Assembly: GCA_019694145.1 (NCBI GenBank)
Contig: JAIBCJ010000009.1
Coordinates: forward strand, 1 to 39,253
Reading direction: 5' to 3'
Source of the DNA: Solirubrobacterales bacterium
GTDB lineage: Bacteria; Actinomycetota; Thermoleophilia; Solirubrobacterales; 70-9
Length of the DNA: 39,253 nucleotides
A program made the position numbers and the translations under genes. Positions within the stretch are counted from its first letter, which is position 1; every line of letters starts with the position of its first letter. The notes beneath the pieces were generated by a model that worked only from the letters and a program-made list of their open reading frames with translations, was not told the origin of the DNA and ran no database searches. Shown here one piece after another: positions 27,294 through 39,253 of the stretch.

Positions 27294-28294
27294 CACTGCC
27301 TCCCATCCAGATCGCTGACGCGAATCGAGTTGCCGGTCTCTGCCGAACGATAGGCAGCCTCGATTACGGCAACTGCGGAGCGGCCCGCCGCCAGCCCCGA
27401 CTCGGGTTCCCGGCCCGCGGCGAGATCGTCGAGGCAGGCCCGGACCGAGGCGATCACCGACTCGTCCCAGTCGCCGGTCACCGGGTCATCGACCCAGGCT
27501 CCGTCGAGCCGGGCCCGCAGCCTGAGGTCCCCGGAAAGGTCACCTTCGAAGAACGCCTCGCAGCCCAGCGCCTCGGCCATCCCGGCCGAGCCCTGGATCT
27601 CGATCCGGTCGTCGAAGACCCCTTCGGGCCCGTGATAGCCACCCTGGATCACGCCGGTGGCTCCGCTCTCGAACTCGAGGGTGAGGACGAAGCTGTCCTC
27701 CGACCGGGGCTTGTCCATCACCGCCGAAACGGTGCTTACCGGGCCGCCGAGATACTCGGCCATGTAGACCCGGTGGACCCCCGCGTCCATCAGGAGCCCG
27801 CCGCCAACCTGGGATGAATCCTCCCGCCAGCCGCCGTACTTTCCGCCCATCCACAGGCGCTCGTAGATCGCCCTGATCTGCCCCAGCCGGCCCGCGTCGA
27901 TCAGCTCACGCAGACGCCGGTGAGGCGCGAAGTGGATCTGGTTGTGGGAGATCCCGACCCGGTGGTCAAAGGCTTCGGCCGCGGCGATGATCTCGTCACA
28001 GCCGGCGAGATCAATCGCCATCGGCTTCTCGAGCAGCACGTCGGCGCCGGCTTCGAGCGCGGCCACGGCGATCGGCACGTGAAGGTGGTGAGGCAGGCAG
28101 ATGTCGACCACATCCGGCTCGGTCAGTTCGACCATCTCCATGACCTCGGTGTGGATCGGCACCTCGTCACCGACGCTTTCGACCGCGAGGCGGCGGTTCA
28201 GTTCCAGCACACCGACCAGTTCGTGACCGCTTTCGCGGATCGCCCTGAGGTGGATCTGGCCGATCTCGCCGAGTCCGCAGAGCGCGACCTTCAC
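27293..28294 (-). CDS. Gfo/Idh/MocA-family NAD(P)-dependent oxidoreductase
   Basis: This 333-residue dehydrogenase of the inositol/glucose-fructose oxidoreductase family has a Rossmann N-terminus (VALCGLGEIGQIHLRAI). DICLPHHLHVPIAVAAL precedes LLEKPMAIDL (Lys of EKP, about 97). The substrate region contains GGGLLMDAGVHRVYMAEYLGG, with Asp and His four residues apart as in inositol dehydrogenases. These enzymes oxidise a ring or chain hydroxyl of polyols or sugars. It overlaps the preceding and following genes, so it is coexpressed. The pairing with an IolE/IolI-like isomerase points to polyol or sugar derivatives. Confidence 0.92.
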   Translation of the reverse strand: MKVALCGLGEIGQIHLRAIRESGHELVGVLELNRRLAVESVGDEVPIHTEVMEMVELTEPDVVDICLPHHLHVPIAVAALEAGADVLLEKPMAIDLAGCDEIIAAAEAFDHRVGISHNQIHFAPHRRLRELIDAGRLGQIRAIYERLWMGGKYGGWREDSSQVGGGLLMDAGVHRVYMAEYLGGPVSTVSAVMDKPRSEDSFVLTLEFESGATGVIQGGYHGPEGVFDDRIEIQGSAGMAEALGCEAFFEGDLSGDLRLRARLDGAWVDDPVTGDWDESVIASVRACLDDLAAGREPESGLAAGRSAVAVIEAAYRSAETGNSIRVSDLDGRQ

Positions 28295-29076
28295 GAGCCC
28301 TCCCCGAGCAGGGCCGCCACCTGGCCGCGGGCGAGCCTGGCCGCGGCAGCCGGGTCGCTGCCCAGCACCTGCTCGTAATAAGCGTAGGCCTCGAACTCGA
28401 CCGAGAGCGGGCCTTCGTATCCGACTCGGTCGAGCGCCGCGAAAGTCTCCGGCCAGGGAACCTTGCCCTCACCGAGCATGCAGAAGATGAAGTCCTCGCC
28501 GTCGATGCCGGGCCGGCCGAAGGCGTCCTTGAGGTGGAAGTGGACGATCCGCTCGCCCCAGCGTTCGATCAGCTCCGGGATCGGGTCGCCGGTCATCACG
28601 AAATGGCTGGGGTCGAAGGTGACCGAAACGCCGACCGAATCCAGCACCCGCTGGGCGGTCTGCGCGTCGTGGGCCAGGGTGCCCCAGCAGGGTTCGAATC
28701 CGATCGCAACTCCCGCCGCCTCGCCCCGGGCGACGATCCACTCCAGCGCTTCGAGCGCAACCTTCCAGGCTGCTTCATCGTCGCGCTGAACCGCGCCCTC
28801 CTCCCACAGATTCGGGCCGGTCAGCACGTTGACGACCCCGATCCCGGCGGCGGCCGCCGCTTCGATGCCGCGGATGGTTTCCTCGGCCGCTTTTTCGCCT
28901 CCGGTGACCAGGTCCATCTGACAGGCGAGGGCCGAGGCCGGCGCGAGCAGTTCCTCCGCGTGGGCCATGGTCCACTCGACCGAGTCATATCCGGCCTCGA
29001 GCAGCGACTCGAGGACTTCCGCGGCGGGGCGCTCTTCGTAGTCGAGCGCCGCGATGAAGCTGATCTCCCTCGTCAC
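28291..29076 (-). CDS. Sugar phosphate isomerase/epimerase-like TIM barrel
   Basis: This 261-residue AP-endonuclease-2 family TIM barrel covers IolE, IolI, hydroxypyruvate isomerase and ketose 3-epimerases. Likely metal ligands are Glu in IGFEPCWG (about 127), Asp in VTFDPSHFVM (about 158), His in VHFHLKDAFG (about 184) and Glu in LSVEFEAY (about 226). The barrel starts SFIAALDYEERPAAEVLESL. The GTG start overlaps the aminotransferase stop by 4 bases. The exact reaction (isomerisation, epimerisation or dehydration) cannot be assigned. Confidence 0.9.
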   Translation of the reverse strand: MTREISFIAALDYEERPAAEVLESLLEAGYDSVEWTMAHAEELLAPASALACQMDLVTGGEKAAEETIRGIEAAAAAGIGVVNVLTGPNLWEEGAVQRDDEAAWKVALEALEWIVARGEAAGVAIGFEPCWGTLAHDAQTAQRVLDSVGVSVTFDPSHFVMTGDPIPELIERWGERIVHFHLKDAFGRPGIDGEDFIFCMLGEGKVPWPETFAALDRVGYEGPLSVEFEAYAYYEQVLGSDPAAAARLARGQVAALLGEGS

Positions 29077-30419
29077 AGAGTCGCCTCGACATCACCGAGG
29101 GCCCGCTTGAAGAGGTCGATCATCTCCATCGCGTCTTCCTCGGTCACGTTGACGGCCGGCTTGAACTTGGCGACGTTGCCGTTCGCGCCGAAGACCGGGC
29201 CGGTCTTGCCGATCATCAGTCCATGCTCGAGGCAGGCGGCCATCAGCTGGTCGGTTTCCTCGAAGGCCGGTTCCCTGGTCTCCCGGTCGCGGACCAGCTC
29301 GACCCCGATCATCAGGCCCTGGCCGCGAACATCGCCGATCAGCTTCGAGTCCTCCTGGATCTTCTCCAGTTCCTCGATCATCATCGTGCCGATCCGCTCG
29401 GAATTGGCAGGCAGGTCATCCCGGACCATGATCTCGACCATTGCCAGGCCCGCCGCGCAGGCCATCGGGTTGCCGGCCTGGGTGAAGCCGTATTCCCAGG
29501 GCAGCAGTTCCGAGTACTCGGGGGTGGTGATCGTGGCCGAGAGCGGCAGGCCGCCACCAAGCGCCTTGCCGAGGATGATCATCTCCGGCTCGATCCCGGC
29601 CCGCTGGCTGGCGTACATCGGCCCGCAGCGGCAAAGAGCGCCCTGGATCTCGTCGACGATCAGCGGGACCTCATGTGACTTGGCGATCTCGTGGACCCGC
29701 TCGAGGTAGCCGTCCGGGGCGGGAACCATGCCGCCGTTTGCCTGGTAGGGCTCGACGATCACCCCGGCCGGACCGTTCAGGTGGCCCTTGTCGAGGGCCC
29801 AGTCGACCGCTTCCGCGCAGGCCATGTCACAGGTTCCGGGTTCCAGGTTGAGCGGGCAGCGGTAGCAGTTGTAATTCGGCACCCGCATCTGTCGCGGCAG
29901 GTAGCGGTCGAGGCCCTTGTTGGCCCCCTCGACCATGCCGGGGTTCACGTAGGTCAGGCCGATCGTGGCAAAGGTCCGGCCGTGGAAGGCAGCGTCGAGG
30001 CAGACGAAATCAGTCCCACCCGTCGTCCGCATCGCAAGATGCATCGCTCCTTCCACGGCCGATGCGCCGGAGAGACCGTAGAGCACCTTCGAGAGTGCTC
30101 CTGGCGCAAGTTCAGCCAGTTTCTTCGCATAGGCGGTCCGGGCTTCATCCTCGAAGACCGGCGATACATAGTCGATCTTGCCGAACTGGGCCTCCATCGC
30201 TTCGATGATCTCGGGGTGGCGGAAGCCGAGATTGAGAACCCATTCGGCCGAGATCGCGTCCAGGTATTCGTTGCCGTCGGCATCCCAGACCCGGACGCCT
30301 TCGCCCTTGACCAGGCCCATGTCCACATCGCCCATGCACTTGATGACATGGTCATCGGACTCGTTCTTCAGCTGTTGCGCGGCCCCGTTCGGGTCTCTTT
30401 CGGGGGTGTCGTGATTCAC
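29073..30419 (-). CDS. Class III (omega) aminotransferase, PLP-dependent
   Basis: This 448-residue fold-type I PLP enzyme transfers an amino group, typically from a terminal amine, to pyruvate or 2-oxoglutarate. VWDADGNEYLDAISAEW opens the domain, GLSGASAVEGAMHLAMR binds PLP phosphate, and VDEIQGALCRCG holds Asp256. Lys285 in ILGKALGGGLPLSA is the Schiff-base lysine. NYNCYRCPLNLEPGTCDMACAE is a cysteine-rich insert seen in beta-alanine/taurine- and dialkylglycine-type relatives. AAGGAGG lies seven bases before the GTG start. The ThDP gene ends 23 bases upstream and the isomerase gene overlaps by 4. An amine-bearing substrate for the pathway is therefore probable. Confidence 0.93.
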   Translation of the reverse strand: MNHDTPERDPNGAAQQLKNESDDHVIKCMGDVDMGLVKGEGVRVWDADGNEYLDAISAEWVLNLGFRHPEIIEAMEAQFGKIDYVSPVFEDEARTAYAKKLAELAPGALSKVLYGLSGASAVEGAMHLAMRTTGGTDFVCLDAAFHGRTFATIGLTYVNPGMVEGANKGLDRYLPRQMRVPNYNCYRCPLNLEPGTCDMACAEAVDWALDKGHLNGPAGVIVEPYQANGGMVPAPDGYLERVHEIAKSHEVPLIVDEIQGALCRCGPMYASQRAGIEPEMIILGKALGGGLPLSATITTPEYSELLPWEYGFTQAGNPMACAAGLAMVEIMVRDDLPANSERIGTMMIEELEKIQEDSKLIGDVRGQGLMIGVELVRDRETREPAFEETDQLMAACLEHGLMIGKTGPVFGANGNVAKFKPAVNVTEEDAMEMIDLFKRALGDVEATL

Positions 30420-30442
30420 CTTGTTGCCTCCTTGGGTGGGGG

Positions 30443-32197
30443 TCAGGGGAGGTAGGCCGGCTTCGGCAGATCCCAGTGGCCGATGTTCACGCCTTCACTG
30501 TCGGCCGGTTCGGATGAGAGTTCGAACTCGATCAGGCAGGGCCCTTCCGAGGCCATCGCCCGCTCGAAGGCGGGACCGATATCGCCGGTCTCGGTCACCT
30601 TCTCCGAGCCGCAGTTGAAGGCTTCGGCAATCGCGCAGAAGTCGACCGGCATCAGCTGGTCGCCCTTGCGCGAGCGGAACTCGGTCTCGAAGCCGCGGTC
30701 CTCGCCGAACATGCCGCGCTGGAAGTCCCGGATCGAGATCCAGCCGGTGTTGTTGAGGCAGGCGATGATCACGGCCGCGCCGGTCTCGGCGGCAACTGCC
30801 AGCTCCTGGATCGTCTGCTGGAGGTCACCGTCACCGGCGAAGCCGACCACCGGCACATCCGGTTTGGCCAGCTTGGCTCCGATCGCGGCCGGCAGGGTGT
30901 AGCCCATGGTCGAGTAACCGCCCGGGCTGAGCCAGGTCCGCGGTTCATAGGAGAGGAACTCCTGGAAGGCCTGGATCTGGGGGTGGCCGGCCGAGGCGAT
31001 CGCGATCGCTTCCCGCGGCAATACCTCCCGTGACTTGTGCAGGACCTGGCTGAGCGAGAGCTTGCCGGTCCAGCGGCCGGTCAGCATTTCCTTCCAGTCG
31101 GCCCGCAGCTTCGCGATCTCTTCCCGGTAGGCGGGCCGGCTGATTCCTTCGGTTCCGTTGTGATCGACCAGCGCGTCGAAGAGATCGTTGAGACCGGCCT
31201 TTGCGTCACAGACCGCGCCGACCGCGGTCGGGTAGTTCTTGCCGATCTCGGTCGGGTCGATGTCGAGGTGGATGATCTCGGTCGGCGGAATCGAGAAGGA
31301 CATCCCGTCCATGAAGGAGGAGGAGGTCTGCTCGGCAAAGCGGGTGCCGACCGCGAGGATCACGTCCGCGTTCTTGGTCATGTAGTTGCCGACCAGGGTG
31401 CCGTTGGAGCCGGTGTGTTCGGCGTCGAGCGGATGGTCCTCGGGGAAGACCCCCTTGCCCATCATGGTCACGACCACGGCCGCGTCCAGATATTCGGCGA
31501 CCTTCTTCACCTCGGCCGCCGCCTTCGCCTCGAGGCAGCCGCCGCCGGCCAGCAGCACCGGCCGCTTCGCCGCGAGCAGCTTCGCCGCCGCCTTGTCAAT
31601 CGCGTCCGGGTCCGGCCTCACCGCGCCGGATGTGGCCCGCCGCTCGGCCGGGTCCGGAACCGGCAGTTCGGTCACTTCGGCCTGAACGTCCATCGGCAGC
31701 TCGATGTGAACCGGACCGGGCCGGCCCGAGAGCATGTTGTTGAAGGCCCGCGGCAGAACATCAGCCAGCAGGTCCACATGCTGGACATCCCAGTTCCGCT
31801 TGACCATCGGCTGGATGATGTGAGGGAAGACATTGTCCTGCTGGCGTTCGAGTTCCTGCAGGACACCGCGGCCGAGCATGTAGGTCTGGGGGCCTCCGGT
31901 GAATGAGATCAGCGGGATCGAATCGACGAAGGCGGTCCCGAGACCGGTGGCCACGTTCATCGAACCCGGACCGATCGAGGTCATCGTGGCCAGAGGTTTG
32001 CCCGACGCCCGGTAATAGGCATCGGCCATATGGGCAGCCGCCTGCTCGTGCCGCGGGCCGATCATGGTGATCCGGTCGGCCCGGTCCTTGAATGCATCGA
32101 ATGCCGCCATGTCGCCATGACCGGGAATTCCGAATACATACGGAACCCCCTCCGCGATCAGATACTCGGCGACGAATTCTCCTCCGGTCAGTCCCAC
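30443..32197 (-). CDS. ThDP-dependent enzyme, acetolactate-synthase/IolD-like
   Basis: This 584-residue enzyme has the three domains of the POX/ALS family. Catalytic Glu51 lies in GPRHEQAAAHMADAYYRASG, a central domain (about 195-330) begins after SGRPGPVHIELPMD, and the ThDP/Mg motif GDGDLQQ runs to ACLNNTGW with the canonical two Asn. The GTG at 32197 is used because GGAAGGAG precedes it by five bases; the frame is open ten codons further. It is the first gene of the nine-gene operon. Candidate reactions are 2-oxoacid decarboxylation, aldehyde ligation, or C-C hydrolysis of a cyclic dione as in IolD. GHWDLPKPAYLP at the C-terminus does not identify a subfamily to me. Confidence 0.9.
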   Translation of the reverse strand: MGLTGGEFVAEYLIAEGVPYVFGIPGHGDMAAFDAFKDRADRITMIGPRHEQAAAHMADAYYRASGKPLATMTSIGPGSMNVATGLGTAFVDSIPLISFTGGPQTYMLGRGVLQELERQQDNVFPHIIQPMVKRNWDVQHVDLLADVLPRAFNNMLSGRPGPVHIELPMDVQAEVTELPVPDPAERRATSGAVRPDPDAIDKAAAKLLAAKRPVLLAGGGCLEAKAAAEVKKVAEYLDAAVVVTMMGKGVFPEDHPLDAEHTGSNGTLVGNYMTKNADVILAVGTRFAEQTSSSFMDGMSFSIPPTEIIHLDIDPTEIGKNYPTAVGAVCDAKAGLNDLFDALVDHNGTEGISRPAYREEIAKLRADWKEMLTGRWTGKLSLSQVLHKSREVLPREAIAIASAGHPQIQAFQEFLSYEPRTWLSPGGYSTMGYTLPAAIGAKLAKPDVPVVGFAGDGDLQQTIQELAVAAETGAAVIIACLNNTGWISIRDFQRGMFGEDRGFETEFRSRKGDQLMPVDFCAIAEAFNCGSEKVTETGDIGPAFERAMASEGPCLIEFELSSEPADSEGVNIGHWDLPKPAYLP

Positions 32198-32235
32198 CTG
32201 TTCTCCTTCCTCCGGGCTGATGCCCACGCTATAGC

Positions 32236-32251
32236 AGGTAACATATTACCT
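32236..32251. promoter_or_regulatory. Inverted repeat in the divergent catabolic promoter (candidate GntR operator)
   Basis: AGGTAACATATTACCT consists of perfect 6-base arms around CATA, in the AT-rich gap between the ThDP operon and the FAD-oxidase gene. On the minus strand TATAGC and TAATAT are possible -10 elements; on the plus strand TACCTT (32261-32266) is one. The arms with GT and AC spaced across a short centre suit FadR/FCD-type GntR proteins, and the only such regulator nearby is in this operon. Confidence 0.55.
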
Positions 32252-32333
32252 ACTACCGGCTACCTTGCAATCAGGATCCGGGGAGCTGAGGGACGAACCC
32301 GCATTGGAATCAGGAATTTCTGAAAAGCGAATC

Positions 32334-33719
32334 GTGAACGGCAACCTTGCCCGGGAACTGGCGAACCTGCTTTCGCCTGAACAGGTGGTCACTATCGGCC
32401 CCGAATTGAGAGCTGCCCTGCAGGACGGAACCGGCAACCGCGGCATCAAAGGCGAGGCCGAGGCTCTCCTCCTGCCCGCCGACGCTGAAGAAGTGGCCGA
32501 GGTCATGGCCTGGTGCTACGGGCATGGCGTGCCGCTGACCGTGCGCGGGGGTGGCACCGGACTGGCCGGTGGGGCCGTGCCGGATGGCGGGGTTGTACTC
32601 AGCCTGGAACGGCTAGCCCGGGTTCGTTCGATCGATCCCGAGCTCTGGCGGATGGAAGTCGAGGCCGGGGTCCGGACGGCCACAGTGCACCGGATCGCGC
32701 TCGAGAACGGACTGATGTTCCCTCCCGACCCGGGGGCCAGCGAACAGTCCACGATCGGCGGCAACATCGCCACCAACGCCGGCGGCCCTCACGCATTCCG
32801 GTACGGGGTGACCGGGGCCTGGGTGACCGGCATCGAGGCGGTCGTGCCACCGGGAGAGGTCCTTTCCTCCGGCGGGCCGCTGAGGAAGAACGTCGCCGGC
32901 CTCGACCTGACCGACCTGATGATCGGTTCGGAAGGAACCCTCGGGATCGTCACCTCAGCCTGGCTGCGGCTGGTGCCGGCCCCCGAGGAACGCGGCGTCG
33001 TGGTCGGCTTCTACCCGGACACCGCCTCCGGCTGCGAGGCGATTGGAATGATCATGGGTTCCGGGATCCAGCCGACGGCGCTCGAGTTCCTCGACCGCGG
33101 CGCGCTCGAATCCAGCCTCGGTTCCTTTCCTTCCGAGGCACCGGAGCAGGCGGGTTTTGCCGTGATCGCCGAGGCCGACGGTTCCGCCGGCGAGGTGAAC
33201 CAGGCGGTCGGGGACCTGGAAGAGGCGATGGCCGGAGGGGCACTTCAGCCGCCGGTCAGGATCACCGACCATGTCGCAATCCGGAACTTCTGGGCCTGGC
33301 GGGACGGAGTTTCGATCGCCGTCACCGCCCAGCGCGGCGGCAAGATTTCCGAGGATGTCGTGGTTCCGGTCGAGTCGCTGGCTGCGGCGGTCGACGAGAC
33401 GGTCGAGATCGGCCGCCGTCACGACCTGCCGGCCTGTTCCTGGGGTCACGCCGGGGACGGCAACCTGCATTCCAGCTTCCTCGTCGACCTGGCCGACGAT
33501 GACCAGATGAAGCGGGGCGGCGCGGCGGCGGCCGAGATCTTCGAGATGGCGATCCGCCTGGGCGGGTCGATCAGCGGCGAGCATGGCATCGGCTCGCTCA
33601 AGACCGGACATGTGGAGGCTGCCCTCGGGCCGGTCGCGGTGCGGCTGCAGGCGGAGATCAAACGAGTCTTCGACCCCAAGCTGCTGCTCAACCCGGGCAA
33701 GAAGATCCCGCTGCCCTGA
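32334..33719 (+). CDS. FAD-linked 2-hydroxyacid oxidase/dehydrogenase (GlcD-like)
   Basis: This 461-residue flavoprotein of the GlcD/D-lactate dehydrogenase family oxidises 2-hydroxyacids to 2-oxoacids. The FAD-binding PCMH domain (about 30-210) has LTVRGGGTGLAGGAVPDGG, PPDPGASEQSTIGGNIATNAGG and LMIGSEGTLGIVTSAWLRL. The C-terminal domain contains ACSWGHAGDGNLHSSFLVD (metal and substrate histidines) and ISGEHGIGSLK, ending FDPKLLLNPGKK. The GTG at 32334 was chosen by homologue length; open TTG codons at 32265 and 32304 are alternatives, but the first would overlap the promoter. Divergent from the ThDP operon, it would supply a 2-oxoacid to a ThDP enzyme. No Fe-S partner (GlcF) is present. Confidence 0.9.
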   Translation: MNGNLARELANLLSPEQVVTIGPELRAALQDGTGNRGIKGEAEALLLPADAEEVAEVMAWCYGHGVPLTVRGGGTGLAGGAVPDGGVVLSLERLARVRSIDPELWRMEVEAGVRTATVHRIALENGLMFPPDPGASEQSTIGGNIATNAGGPHAFRYGVTGAWVTGIEAVVPPGEVLSSGGPLRKNVAGLDLTDLMIGSEGTLGIVTSAWLRLVPAPEERGVVVGFYPDTASGCEAIGMIMGSGIQPTALEFLDRGALESSLGSFPSEAPEQAGFAVIAEADGSAGEVNQAVGDLEEAMAGGALQPPVRITDHVAIRNFWAWRDGVSIAVTAQRGGKISEDVVVPVESLAAAVDETVEIGRRHDLPACSWGHAGDGNLHSSFLVDLADDDQMKRGGAAAAEIFEMAIRLGGSISGEHGIGSLKTGHVEAALGPVAVRLQAEIKRVFDPKLLLNPGKKIPLP

Positions 33720-33807
33720 GCCTCGCTCCCGCCCTTCAGGAGACTGCGGGAAAACCCTGAACTTTCGCTCGGGAAGCGGAGAAGACGAGATTTGCTCCTA
33801 CACTCGG

Positions 33808-33861
33808 GTCTGCCCTTTTCCGGAAGAAAAGCAGACTTCCAATCCCGTGCGGCACCGCACG
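33808..33861 (+). promoter_or_regulatory. Two hairpins in the leader of the second ThDP gene
   Basis: Within the 167-base gap before the gene, 33808-33836 can pair as GTCTG/CAGAC plus CTTTTC/GAAAAG with a two-base bulge. CGTGCGG-CA-CCGCACG (33846-33861) is a near-perfect short inverted repeat. TACACT at 33799-33804 is a possible -10 box, which would place both structures in the mRNA leader. They could be an operator, a leader RNA element or a terminator for the preceding gene. Confidence 0.4.
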
Positions 33862-33886
33862 ATGCCGCCGACAGCAAGGAGCAGTG

Positions 33887-35605
33887 ATGTCCGAGATCAC
33901 CGGCGGCGAACTCTTCGCCAAGTGTCTGGCAAGCGAGGGAATAGAGCATGTCTTCGGATTGCCTTCCCCCGAGATCGACCCCCTCTTCGCGCAGCTCGAG
34001 AAGTACGGGATCCGGCTGATGCCGGTGCGGCATGAATCGGCCGGGGTCCACATGGCCGAGGGTCTCTACAAGTCGACCGGCAAGGCGTCCTGCGTGATCG
34101 GCAACCCCGGCCCCGGGTCAGCCAACCTGCTGCCGGGCATCTTCACGGCACTTCACGAAGGCGTGCCCGTGCTGGCGATCACCTCGCAACACCGTATGGG
34201 CGTGAGTTACCCCTCGCCACCTTCGACTTTCCAGGGCCAGGACCAGCTCGATGCCTTCCGGCCCGCGGTCAAGTGGGGCGGGCCGATCTTCGAATGGGAC
34301 CGGATCCCCGAGGTGCTCCGGCTCGCCTTCCGCGAGATGTGGAACGGCCGTCCCGGCCCGGTTCACGTCGATGTCCCGGTCACCGTCATGTATGACCTCG
34401 GCGAAGAGAGCGAGCAGCCGATCCTCGCCCCCGGGGCCTACCGCCCTTCACAGCCACAGGCATCAGCCGCGCAGATCGGTGCCGCCGCGGATCTGCTCGA
34501 GTCGGCCAGCCGCCCGATCGTGGTGGCCGGAGCCGGCGTGGACCGGGCCGGGGCCAACGCGCAGGCGGCGGAACTGGCCGAGCTGCTCGGCTGCCCGCTG
34601 ATCCCCACCCAGGCCGGACGGGCCAGCGTCAGATCCGACCACCCGAACTATGTCTTCGGCTTCGGCGAAGGCGGGATCAAGGCCCGGCTCGAAGCCGATG
34701 TGATTCTGGTCGCCGGGTCCCGGATCGGCAACCTCGACCTCCCCTACGACAAGTACTGGGGCGACCCCGAGAACCAAAGCCTGATCCAGATCGATACCGA
34801 CCCCAGCCATCTCGGTGTAACCCGGCCCCTGGCGATCGGCATGGTCGCCGACGCCGCCGACGCGCTGGGCGGGATCACAGCCGAACTGAAAAGACGGGAC
34901 AAGACTCCCTCGGCCGAAGCGACCGCGGCCCTGGCCGAGGCCCGGGAAGCTGACGCGGCCTGGCAGGCAGTTCAGGCCTCCACCGCGGATGACTGGGAAG
35001 GCGAGGGGATCCACCCGGCCCGGGCGATCGAGGTGATCGGCGAGACCTTTGGCGACCAGGCGATCTACACGGTGGACGGCGGCCTGACCTCGGTCTGGGC
35101 CTACGCCGGCCTGCCGCCGACCCCGCCCCGTTCGTACCACAGCATCCTCGAGCTGGGCATGCTCGGAACCGGCATTCCTTCCGCGATCGGATCGAAGATC
35201 GGCTGTCCCGACCGGGATGTCGTCTGCGTGACCGGGGACGGCGCCGCCGGGTTCAACATCATGGAAATGCAGTCAGCCGCGCGCGACTCGATCCCGGTCA
35301 CCGTGATCGTCTTCGCCGAGGGCTCCTGGACCATGGAGGAACCAAACGAACTCGCCCTCTTCAACCGGACCTTCGGTACCGAGCAGGGCGAGACCCGATG
35401 GGATCTGGTCGCCGAGGGGCTCGGATGCCACGGCGAATTCGTGGATCAACTCGGAGACCTGGGCGAGGCCCTGGTCCGGTGCCGTGATTCCGGCCGGCCT
35501 TCGGTTGTCTGCCTGAAGACGAACCGGGATGCGAACCGGGTCATCCCCCCGGCGATGGCCGCCCGCTGGATGGAGGTCCAGGCGGGCCCGATCCCGGGGG
35601 TCTGA
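33887..35605 (+). CDS. ThDP-family enzyme with altered metal-binding motif
   Basis: This 572-residue protein of the POX/ALS family has catalytic Glu50 in MPVRHESAGVHMAEGLY, NPGPGSANLLPGIFTAL, a central domain (about 185-330) with VVAGAGVDRAGANA, and a ThDP motif beginning GDGAAGFN at 450. In the family the motif closes with Asn-Asn or Asn-Asp about 25 residues later; here the positions read Ala477-Glu478 (FAEGSWTMEE). Codons GCC GAG at 35315-35320 confirm this. The ATG at 33887 follows AAGGAG by five bases. It lies downstream of the GlcD-like gene on the same strand. It may bind cofactor differently or be specialised for a distinct reaction. Confidence 0.87.
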   Translation: MSEITGGELFAKCLASEGIEHVFGLPSPEIDPLFAQLEKYGIRLMPVRHESAGVHMAEGLYKSTGKASCVIGNPGPGSANLLPGIFTALHEGVPVLAITSQHRMGVSYPSPPSTFQGQDQLDAFRPAVKWGGPIFEWDRIPEVLRLAFREMWNGRPGPVHVDVPVTVMYDLGEESEQPILAPGAYRPSQPQASAAQIGAAADLLESASRPIVVAGAGVDRAGANAQAAELAELLGCPLIPTQAGRASVRSDHPNYVFGFGEGGIKARLEADVILVAGSRIGNLDLPYDKYWGDPENQSLIQIDTDPSHLGVTRPLAIGMVADAADALGGITAELKRRDKTPSAEATAALAEAREADAAWQAVQASTADDWEGEGIHPARAIEVIGETFGDQAIYTVDGGLTSVWAYAGLPPTPPRSYHSILELGMLGTGIPSAIGSKIGCPDRDVVCVTGDGAAGFNIMEMQSAARDSIPVTVIVFAEGSWTMEEPNELALFNRTFGTEQGETRWDLVAEGLGCHGEFVDQLGDLGEALVRCRDSGRPSVVCLKTNRDANRVIPPAMAARWMEVQAGPIPGV

Positions 35606-35747
35606 ACCCGGCCCATATCCCGAAGCGCGCCCTCCGGATACTGGGCGTCGCACCAGCCTGCTGCGGGCGGAATACCTCAGTTCAAGTGGACGGCCAAGAC
35701 CAGGTACAGGATCAAACTACCTTTCAGGCAACAGCGTTGTGTATGGT

Positions 35748-35766
35748 TAGACAACATTGTTGTCTA
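35748..35766. promoter_or_regulatory. Perfect 19-bp palindrome upstream of the CocE-type gene (candidate TetR operator)
   Basis: TAGACAACATTGTTGTCTA has 9-base arms around a central T. It lies just after TATGGT (35742-35747, a possible -10 box) and 19 bases before the start codon, covering the expected transcription start. Size and symmetry suit a TetR dimer. A truncated tetR lies at the far end of the same gene. Confidence 0.7.
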
Positions 35767-35785
35767 GGAGGAGGAGTGCGTTACC

Positions 35786-37741
35786 GTGGTGCAAACTGAA
35801 GCTGGACTCCTGGTCCTGAAGCGGACTTCGGCTTGGTCAGTCGCAATTGCTTTGGCAGTCGTCGGACTGCTGGTATTCAGCTCGCTGGCCCAAGCGGCAA
35901 ACCCGTTGCCTGACAGTCAACGGGCCGACCTTCCCAAGCCCGGTAATTACCTGCCCGTCAATGGGGTCTGGGCGGAGCGCTTGACCGGATACATGGATGC
36001 CCGAGACGGTATGGACCTGAAATACAGCGTCCTTCTTCCACCCGGCGACGGACCGTTCCCGGCGATCATGAATTACTCGGGCTATGACCCCGGAAGCATC
36101 GGTGGCACCGCCTATCAAGCTGGCAATACAACCATGGACCCTGAACTTGACGCGAAGCTGCTCAAAGCTGGGTACGCGGTGGTCGGCGTGAATATGCGCG
36201 GAACAGGATGCTCGGACGGCAACTTCAGCTTGTTCGCGAACGAATGGGGCACGGATGGCTACGACGCCGTCGAGTGGACGGCCGATCAGCCGTGGTCGAA
36301 CGGCAAAGTCGGAATGGCGAATTGGTCGTATGCGGGGCTAAGTCAGATCTTGACTGCGGTGAACAATCCTCCGCACCTGAAGGCGATCGCTCCCGGCATG
36401 GCCGTGACCGATCAGTGGCGCGACGTCGCCAGCCCGGGCGGTGTGACCAACTGGCTATTCCCCTACGGCTGGGGTCTCTTCATCCAGCAAAGGTGGAACG
36501 CCGCCAAGACCAGCGCAGAAGTTGAAGGCGACACCAAGTGCATTGACAACATCGCCGCCCACAATGCCGGTTTCAACGCCGTCAGCCCCTATCGAGAGGG
36601 TGTCGAGCGTCCACATGTCGACAACAAACCCGGTCGGACAAATCACGTCTGGCGTCAGGTCCACAAGATCAAGGCCGCGGTCATCTCGATGGTTGCCTGG
36701 CAGGACGAAGCGACCGGACCTCGAGCGGGCTACTACCAGAACCGCCTCGATCCGAAGAGGTCCTACCTCGTCGGCACCAACGGCCCGCACGACATCTACA
36801 TGGCAGACCGCTGGCAGGCGATGCTGATTCCGTTCTTCGATCGCTACGTAAAGGGCAAGAAGAACGGCTTCGAGAAGAAGCCGCACGTCCGCCTGTGGTT
36901 TGACACGAAGACCCCGGATGGATCTTCTACCAAGAGTGGCAACCTCCGAAAGTCGACCCCCGGAACTGTCCTGACCCAGAAGAGCCTGCCGATCAAGGTC
37001 AAGCCGCTTAGGCTGTCACTTCGATCAAGTGGAAGCCTGACGACGAACAAGCCGAGGAAGCCGGAACCGGCCTCGTCGTATGACTTCCCGACGGTGAGCC
37101 CGAACGTCAATCCTGACTACGCCGAACCCGGCGACACGGATTGGCAAGAGGATCCTGCTGACCCGAACGGAACGGTCGCTTTCACCACCGCTCCGCTCCA
37201 GCGGACTCTGACGTTCCAGGGCCCGGCCAGCGTTGACCTCTGGGTGTCGGCAACGACTCCGGACGCCGACATTCAGGCCACGATCACCGAGGTCCGGCCT
37301 GACGGCAAGGAGGTCTACGTCAACCGCGGTTGGCTGCGCCTCTCCGAAAGGGCACTCGACAAAAAGCTCTCGACCCCCACCCTTCCGTTCCTGAAGAGGA
37401 CCAAGGGCGCGGTTCAGATGCTGAAGGACTCTAAGCCCGTCTACGGACGAGTGGAGATCATGCAGTTCGCCCACATCTTCCGTAAGGGCACGAGCATCAG
37501 GGTTCTCCTTGACACGCCGAGCACCACCGGTGGATACGGATTCGAAGGCCCGCGGGACGACACCAAGATCAAGGTGTTCCACGGACCGAACCGGAACTCC
37601 AAGCTCGTGCTTGGACTGATGAGGGTCGGCGGCATCAAGACACCGAAGCCTGCCTGTGACACCGTGCTGCGGCAGCCTTGCCGTGAGAACACATTCTCGA
37701 TTCCCACGGGCAAGGGGCCTGACGGTTCTACTGCCAGGTAA
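35786..37741 (+). CDS. Secreted CocE/NonD-type hydrolase (X-Pro dipeptidyl-peptidase S15 fold)
   Basis: This 651-residue exported alpha/beta hydrolase has a signal peptide (to about SSLAQAA, residue 38). YSVLLPPGDGPFPAIMNYSGYD opens the hydrolase domain, and VNMRGTGCSDG is family-specific. The nucleophile is Ser181 in MANWSYAGLSQ, and the catalytic His is probably in VGTNGPHDIYMAD. The C-terminal jelly-roll domain (about 430-630: LTFQGPASVDLWVSATTPDADIQATITEVRPDG) is typical of CocE and S15 enzymes, which cleave esters or X-Pro peptides. The GTG start follows AGGAGGAGGAG. Codons look less GC-biased than in the genes to the left, perhaps a sign of acquisition. Control by the downstream tetR is likely ancestral. 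Confidence 0.92.
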   Translation: MVQTEAGLLVLKRTSAWSVAIALAVVGLLVFSSLAQAANPLPDSQRADLPKPGNYLPVNGVWAERLTGYMDARDGMDLKYSVLLPPGDGPFPAIMNYSGYDPGSIGGTAYQAGNTTMDPELDAKLLKAGYAVVGVNMRGTGCSDGNFSLFANEWGTDGYDAVEWTADQPWSNGKVGMANWSYAGLSQILTAVNNPPHLKAIAPGMAVTDQWRDVASPGGVTNWLFPYGWGLFIQQRWNAAKTSAEVEGDTKCIDNIAAHNAGFNAVSPYREGVERPHVDNKPGRTNHVWRQVHKIKAAVISMVAWQDEATGPRAGYYQNRLDPKRSYLVGTNGPHDIYMADRWQAMLIPFFDRYVKGKKNGFEKKPHVRLWFDTKTPDGSSTKSGNLRKSTPGTVLTQKSLPIKVKPLRLSLRSSGSLTTNKPRKPEPASSYDFPTVSPNVNPDYAEPGDTDWQEDPADPNGTVAFTTAPLQRTLTFQGPASVDLWVSATTPDADIQATITEVRPDGKEVYVNRGWLRLSERALDKKLSTPTLPFLKRTKGAVQMLKDSKPVYGRVEIMQFAHIFRKGTSIRVLLDTPSTTGGYGFEGPRDDTKIKVFHGPNRNSKLVLGLMRVGGIKTPKPACDTVLRQPCRENTFSIPTGKGPDGSTAR

Positions 37742-37752
37742 GAGCGGCCTGT

Positions 37753-37790
37753 CGGCAGCCTACGCGGAGAAACGACCGCGTAGGCTGCCG
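37753..37790 (+). terminator. Strong hairpin between the hydrolase gene and tetR
   Basis: A perfect 15-bp stem (CGGCAGCCTACGCGG with its complement) encloses AGAAACGA, starting 12 bases after the hydrolase stop. Only GTTA follows, so there is no proper T tract. The right arm contains TAGGCT, seven bases before the GTG of tetR, so terminator and tetR promoter may overlap. Confidence 0.65.
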
Positions 37791-37793
37791 TTA

Positions 37794-37954
37794 GTGCCAC
37801 CTGAAATCAACGTTCAAGAGCGCCTGTCGGCGATTGCAGAAGCGACCCTTCAACTCGTTCGTGACGAGGGAACCCGTGGAGTTACTGTTCGAGCTGTCGC
37901 GAAAAAACTCGGTGGCTCAACTTCGCTTGTCACCAAGTACGTCCCGTCGCGAAT
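37794..37954 (+). pseudogene. TetR-family regulator truncated by IS insertion
   Basis: From a GTG at 37794 the frame encodes about 53 residues ending in a complete TetR helix-turn-helix. It reads QERLSAIAEATLQLV, then TVRAVAKKLGGSTSLVTKYVPSR. The IS begins immediately after (37955), so the whole ligand-binding and dimerisation domain is missing. The frame then runs into the IS in a meaningless phase. The protein should be nonfunctional. Its intact ancestor probably bound the palindrome at 35748-35766. The rest of the gene should lie beyond the IS, outside this window. Confidence 0.85.
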
Positions 37955-37971
37955 TGAACCGCCCCGGGTTT
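37955..37971 (+). repeat. IS3 left terminal inverted repeat
   Basis: The 17 bases TGAACCGCCCCGGGTTT are the exact reverse complement of 39237-39253. Transposase binds and cuts here. Confidence 0.95.
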
Positions 37972-38005
37972 GTTGGAGGCCAATTGCTTTGAGAGGATCG
38001 GTCAA

Positions 38006-39222
<1,217 letters not shown>

Positions 39223-39236
39223 AAACCGTCTCCACA

Positions 39237-39253
39237 AAACCCGGGGCGGTTCA
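39237..39253 (+). repeat. IS3 right terminal inverted repeat
   Basis: AAACCCGGGGCGGTTCA is the exact reverse complement of the left end. It is also the end of the window, consistent with an assembly break at a multicopy element. Confidence 0.95.

What the first reader, a model, noticed from the sequence alone, without database searches (positions are those of the whole stretch)
35748..37954. IS3 insertion has probably uncoupled a secreted hydrolase from its TetR repressor
A perfect 19-bp palindrome sits at the promoter of the CocE-type gene, and the gene directly downstream is a tetR cut right after its helix-turn-helix by a complete IS3 element. If the TetR bound the palindrome, the hydrolase is now derepressed.
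Basis: partly seen in the sequence, partly recalled or inferred. Interest (0 to 1): 0.6.

Follow-up and report, generated by a model that had tools for sequence, protein, structure and literature searches.

The report
Mobile element broke a local repressor
A jumping gene has cut in two the small repressor gene that, judging by conserved DNA-binding sites in distant relatives, used to switch off the neighbouring secreted hydrolase gene, so this uncultured actinobacterium probably now makes the enzyme all the time; the mechanism is ordinary, but the comparison reveals the binding code of an apparently uncharacterised repressor family.

Summary
The palindrome TAGACAACATTGTTGTCTA is at 35748-35766, in front of a CocE/NonD hydrolase gene with a signal peptide (35786-37741). 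A complete 1,299-bp IS3 element (37955-39253) cuts the downstream tetR inside codon 54 of 191. The window ends at the IS edge. The missing 3' part of tetR lies on another contig of the same MAG, joined by a 127-bp overlap, in frame, with a 3-bp target duplication (AAT). A sister-species MAG shows the empty site. The TetR-operator link, a guess in the finding, is now well supported. Distant orthologs of this TetR (27-46% identity) mostly sit next to CocE genes, and the promoters beside them carry the palindrome core CAACN3GTTG: exact in 8 of 16 loci (shuffles: mean 0.06), at most one mismatch in 13 of 16. Only three RCAACN3GTTGY sites exist in the 2.55-Mb genome, and two are here. No second TetR of this family was found in the MAG (81% complete). 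Derepression is the likely consequence, but expression was not measured. IS inactivation of a local repressor is a known kind of event.

The parts
35729..35739 (.).
   Evidence: exact CAACN3GTTG; the same 11-mer lies upstream of a hydrolase gene in L078 and a cocE in L109
35742..35747 (+). possible -10 element TATGGT of the cocE promoter, between O1 and O2 (no good -35; weak)
   Evidence: read from sequence; consensus scan found no sigma-70 promoter
35748..35766 (.). Operator O2 (predicted): palindrome TAGACAACATTGTTGTCTA
   Evidence: its core 11-mer CAACATTGTTG occurs identically in L113:4013
35767..35775 (+). Shine-Dalgarno-like GGAGGAGGA of cocE
   Evidence: read from sequence
35786..37741 (+). 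cocE: CocE/NonD (S15) hydrolase with apparent signal peptide, 651 aa; likely catalytic S181, D307, H335
   Evidence: motif positions; triad by motif only
37753..37790 (+). 15-bp stem, 8-nt loop hairpin between cocE and tetR; no T-run; terminator-, attenuator- or stability-type element
   Evidence: fold of 37735-37830 -47.6 kcal/mol, z -4.6
37794..37954 (+). 5' part of tetR (codons 1-53 plus two bases), HTH without ligand-binding/dimerisation domain
   Evidence: TetR_N; reads on into the IS to give a 112-aa ORF
37952..37954 (.). left copy of 3-bp target duplication AAT (right copy on contig C184)
   Evidence: empty site in L040
37955..39253 (+). complete IS3-family element, 1299 bp, TGAACCGCCCCGGG...CCCGGGGCGGTTCA; the contig ends at its edge
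37970..38329 (+). IS orfA (HTH_Tnp_1)
38326..39222 (+). IS orfB (rve integrase core, DD(35)E counted by eye)

Best explanation
cocE and tetR formed a self-regulated pair. The TetR, a dimer, bound two CAACN3GTTG operators (O1 and O2) at the cocE promoter and kept cocE, and by read-through its own gene, low until an unknown ligand released it. An IS3-family element recently inserted into codon 54 of tetR, leaving an HTH stub without the domain that TetR-family proteins use to dimerise and sense ligand. With no other copy of this regulator found in the genome, both operators should be unoccupied and the secreted hydrolase constitutively expressed. Shown here: the insertion, its boundaries, target duplication and empty site, the split gene, the conserved operator core beside TetR/CocE genes in distant genomes, and absence of a detected second copy. 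Inferred: binding, repression (not activation), loss of stub function, and raised expression.
For: Split gene and 3-bp duplication. Empty site in a sister species. Operator core conserved next to distant orthologs (G086, G408, G065, G040 and relatives of G408): exact in 8 of 16, at most 1 mismatch in 13 of 16, versus shuffle means 0.06 and 1.2 with maxima 2 and 6 in 2000; 2 exact sites in 151 kb of the same loci outside the tested promoters. Only three RCAACN3GTTGY sites in the whole MAG, two at this promoter, the third inside a phoH-like coding region. CocE near this TetR in 13 of 16 loci. Conserved recognition-helix region S-T-x-x-V-T-x-Y. No other TetR of this family in the MAG. In the Streptomyces survey of Ahn et al. 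all five tested TetR regulators under 200 bp from a divergent neighbour repressed it (PMC3511530). In G086 the palindrome lies right after TTGACA-N17-TAATGT, a repressor position.
Against: No expression or binding data. The cocE promoter itself has no good sigma-70 match, so an activator or weak promoter is possible. In the window tetR lies downstream in the same direction, not divergent as in the relatives, and the cocE is not orthologous to theirs (about 24-37% identity over parts). The MAG is 81% complete, so another TetR could be missing. Three loci have only 2-mismatch sites. Many of the 16 loci come from one bacterial family, so they are not 16 independent events, and the tested intervals of L078 and L109 were set after seeing the hits.
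Confidence: 0.78

Rival explanations
1. The operators are real and tetR is broken, but expression of cocE is little changed, because the promoter is weak or needs an activator, or because another regulator binds the same sites.
For: No consensus promoter upstream of cocE; the MAG is incomplete.
Against: No second relative of this TetR at E<=1e-3 in the MAG. The possible -10 TATGGT sits between O1 and O2, a repressor-like layout.
Confidence: 0.15
2. The whole unit is decaying: the insertion is one step in loss of a recently acquired, lower-GC accessory module rather than an adaptive derepression. (This can be true together with the best explanation: it concerns why, not what.)
For: cocE/tetR GC 0.58-0.61 versus 0.66 for the window's left part; no close relative of this cocE in the genus except G010; in G010 cocE has a 63-bp deletion and tetR a frameshift.
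Against: cocE in the window is intact, with catalytic-looking motifs and signal peptide; the deletion in G010 is in frame.
Confidence: 0.2
3. The palindrome is unrelated to this TetR (chance, or the site of another regulator).
For: Odd 9-bp-arm palindromes occur in a window like this by chance at about 0.4 expected, 2 seen.
Against: Conservation of its core beside orthologous TetR genes, and the second copy 23 bp away.
Confidence: 0.06
4. The insertion is an assembly artefact.
For: The contig breaks at the IS edge; MAG assembly.
Against: Both halves are found, in frame, with a 3-bp duplication and a matching empty site.
Confidence: 0.03

Closest known systems
TetR-family local repressors with adjacent target gene (TetR paradigm; Ahn et al. 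2012, PMC3511530)
   Same: short palindromic operator at the promoter of the adjacent enzyme gene; N-terminal HTH
   Different: here the regulator is downstream and co-directional with its target, there are two operators 23 bp apart, and the regulator is disrupted
BetI / KstR / 2gfn (pksA-related) subgroup of TetR proteins
   Same: best weak profile matches (BetI 37.5 bits, KstR 26.9 bits, PDB 2gfn E 4e-17); the KstR motif TNNAACNNGTTNNA (known motif; papers listed, not read) also has AAC/GTT half-sites
   Different: far below the BetI and KstR equivalog cut-offs; spacer is 3 (CAAC-N3-GTTG) rather than 2; linked to CocE, amidase and peptide ABC genes
CocE/NonD (X-Pro dipeptidyl-peptidase S15) hydrolases
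   Same: TIGR00976 above cut-off, both S15 and PepX_C domains; closest solved relatives 3ib3 and cocaine esterase
   Different: carries an N-terminal signal peptide; substrate unknown
IS3-family insertion sequences
   Same: orfA/orfB, DD(35)E, TG...CA ends, 3-bp target duplication
   Different: no further intact copy found in the MAG; nearest genus copy 76% identical in G010

Membership tests
IS3 family element | two overlapping frames, transposase with rve/DDE core | tested here: met
   (NF033516 on orfB 299 bits, cut-off 160)
IS3 family element | terminal inverted repeats and 3-4 bp target duplication | tested here: met
   23/26 repeat identity; AAT duplication and empty site
CocE/NonD hydrolase | TIGR00976 above curated cut-off | tested here: met
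   191.8 bits, cut-off 66.3
CocE/NonD hydrolase | Ser-Asp-His catalytic triad, active | not testable with these tools
   motifs NWSYAG (S181), WQDE, NGPHD present; activity not assayed
TetR family repressor | N-terminal TetR_N HTH | tested here: inconclusive
   TetR_N E 1.7e-4, 21.8 bits, just under the Pfam cut-off of 24; orthologs and PDB TetR matches support it
TetR family repressor | palindromic operator at target promoter | tested here: met
   by comparison of sequences only
TetR family repressor | binds DNA and represses, released by ligand | not testable with these tools
   needs EMSA or reporter
BetI or KstR | NCBIfam equivalog cut-off | tested here: not met
   37.5 vs 201.3 and 26.9 vs 280 bits

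The most novel reading that the evidence does not exclude
The repressor has been lost twice independently: by IS insertion in this species and by a 1-bp frameshift in a sister species that shares an otherwise nearly identical ~11-kb tract. That would point to selection for constitutive expression of a secreted hydrolase, on a tract spread between species by recombination.
Probability: 0.2. Interest if true: 0.6.

Novelty: new member of a known kind. Interest (0 to 1): 0.38.

Why it matters
It gives a concrete, testable operator code (CAACN3GTTG, often in pairs) for a TetR subfamily, apparently uncharacterised, that is linked to CocE hydrolases, amidases and peptide ABC transporters in distant actinobacteria, and a natural knockout with an IS-free sister allele in which to test it.

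Tried and rejected
Exact-palindrome search (at most 2 mismatches) in 232 genomes of the order found only G000, G010 and two weak sites: the full 19-mer is not the conserved unit, the CAACN3GTTG core is. G010 was first taken as an intact cocE-tetR pair; being identical it gives no conservation evidence, and its tetR is frameshifted. The most similar plasmid-borne cocE (Nocardia farcinica, 40%) has neither this TetR nor the site at its promoter. A Herbiconiux plasmid TetR pair (29-30%) lacks the exact core. Literature searches for a described CocE-TetR operator gave nothing relevant.

Full report
What is there. The window is one whole contig (C79) of a 233-contig MAG, 2.55 Mb, 81% complete, probably Solirubrobacterales because its genus-mate G010 matches the public MAG HKST-UBA63 in sequence and contig length. 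The palindrome TAGACAACATTGTTGTCTA is at 35748-35766, directly before a strong Shine-Dalgarno sequence and the GTG of a 651-aa CocE/NonD hydrolase gene whose N-terminus reads as a signal peptide. 52 bases after cocE, past a very stable hairpin, a tetR starts at 37794.

The insertion. A 1299-bp IS3-family element with good terminal repeats and both transposase frames fills 37955-39253, and the contig stops at its last base. Contig C184 shares its last 127 bases with the IS end, the sort of overlap an assembler leaves, and then continues with the missing TetR domain in frame. The duplicated target is AAT. HKST-UBA63/G010 carries the empty site.

Is the palindrome the TetR's operator? The 19-mer alone would not settle this: it recurs nowhere convincing in the order. 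The TetR itself was therefore followed; as a search query only, its two halves were read through as one protein. In G086 the ortholog is divergent from a CocE gene and the space between holds the perfect palindrome GGTGAGAGGCAACGCTGTTGCCTCTCACC right after TTGACA-N17-TAATGT. The shared core with the window is CAACN3GTTG. This core then turned up upstream of cocE in G408, in pairs 13 bp apart in several loci of that family, upstream of a hydrolase gene in G040 and in the transporter/TetR promoter of G065. Some sites elsewhere contain the same 11-mer as O2 or O1 (CAACATTGTTG in L113; CAACAGCGTTG in L078 and L109). Over 16 loci other than the window, 8 have an exact core and 13 a core with at most one mismatch; dinucleotide shuffles give 0.06 and 1.2. 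Caveats: many loci are related to each other, and the intervals used for L078 and L109 were set after seeing the hits.

A second site in the window. O1 and O2 are 23 bp apart, and the possible -10 TATGGT lies between them. In G408 the two site clusters are 13 bp apart, about one helical turn less. In the whole MAG only three RCAACN3GTTGY sites exist: these two and one inside a phoH-like gene.

Neighbourhood. In 13 of 16 loci the TetR is near a CocE gene, often with an oligopeptide-binding protein and an amidase. The window's cocE is not an ortholog of those (about 24-37% identity over parts), so regulator and enzyme class are conserved together, not the exact enzyme. This suggests a peptide-, amide- or ester-type substrate or product as ligand (inference).

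Consequence. A TetR protein without its C-terminal domain is not expected to form the usual dimer (general knowledge of the family). The stub reads on into the IS for 112 aa in all; the rest of tetR could be translated only from an ATG at the IS edge, as a domain without HTH. No other TetR of this kind was found in the MAG. Derepression of cocE is thus the most likely result (0.78), not measured. tetR is convergent with the next gene, so no polar effect is expected.

Sister species. G010 is a different species by its flanks (about 78-80% identity left, about 86% right) yet identical from window 27738 to 37954 and 1054 bp beyond (about 11 kb, with 201 bp of cocE not covered by its contigs) except for a 63-bp in-frame deletion in cocE, a 1-bp insertion that frameshifts tetR, and no IS. 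Either a very recent cross-species recombination with two independent repressor losses, or strain mixing in the metagenome assemblies; this cannot be decided here.

Verdict. Confirmed observation, supported interpretation, ordinary mechanism, with a useful by-product: the operator code of a TetR subfamily.

Noticed in passing
window 27738-37954 and L007 (C184) 9157-8104 versus L043, L040 (G010/HKST-UBA63): About 11 kb without base mismatches between two species-level genomes, with a sharp change to about 78-86% identity on both sides: very recent recombination, or chimeric metagenome assembly.
   Followed up: partly
L040:1263-1840 (G010 tetR): The IS-free tetR allele carries a 1-bp insertion that frameshifts the ligand-binding domain; possibly a second, independent loss of the repressor.
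   Followed up: partly
L041:3120, window 35907-35969: 63-bp in-frame deletion in cocE of G010, removing 21 residues just after the signal peptide.
   Followed up: partly
window 37753-37790: 15-bp perfect stem between cocE and tetR without a T-run (fold -47.6 kcal/mol); may limit tetR read-through or protect cocE mRNA.
   Followed up: partly
L007:9192-8740 (-), window 39220 region: The IS ends with an ATG, overlapping the transposase stop (ATGA), that is in frame with the TetR ligand-binding domain; a domain-only protein could be made.
   Followed up: no
L113:4000-4025, L117:4657-4682, L118:4634-4659: Pairs of overlapping CAACN3GTTG palindromes 13 bp apart in CocE/TetR promoters of relatives of G408.
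   Followed up: yes
G000:C169:13730-13899 (L003): A 79%-identical remnant of the right end of the same IS, next to a different IS3-like element.
   Followed up: no
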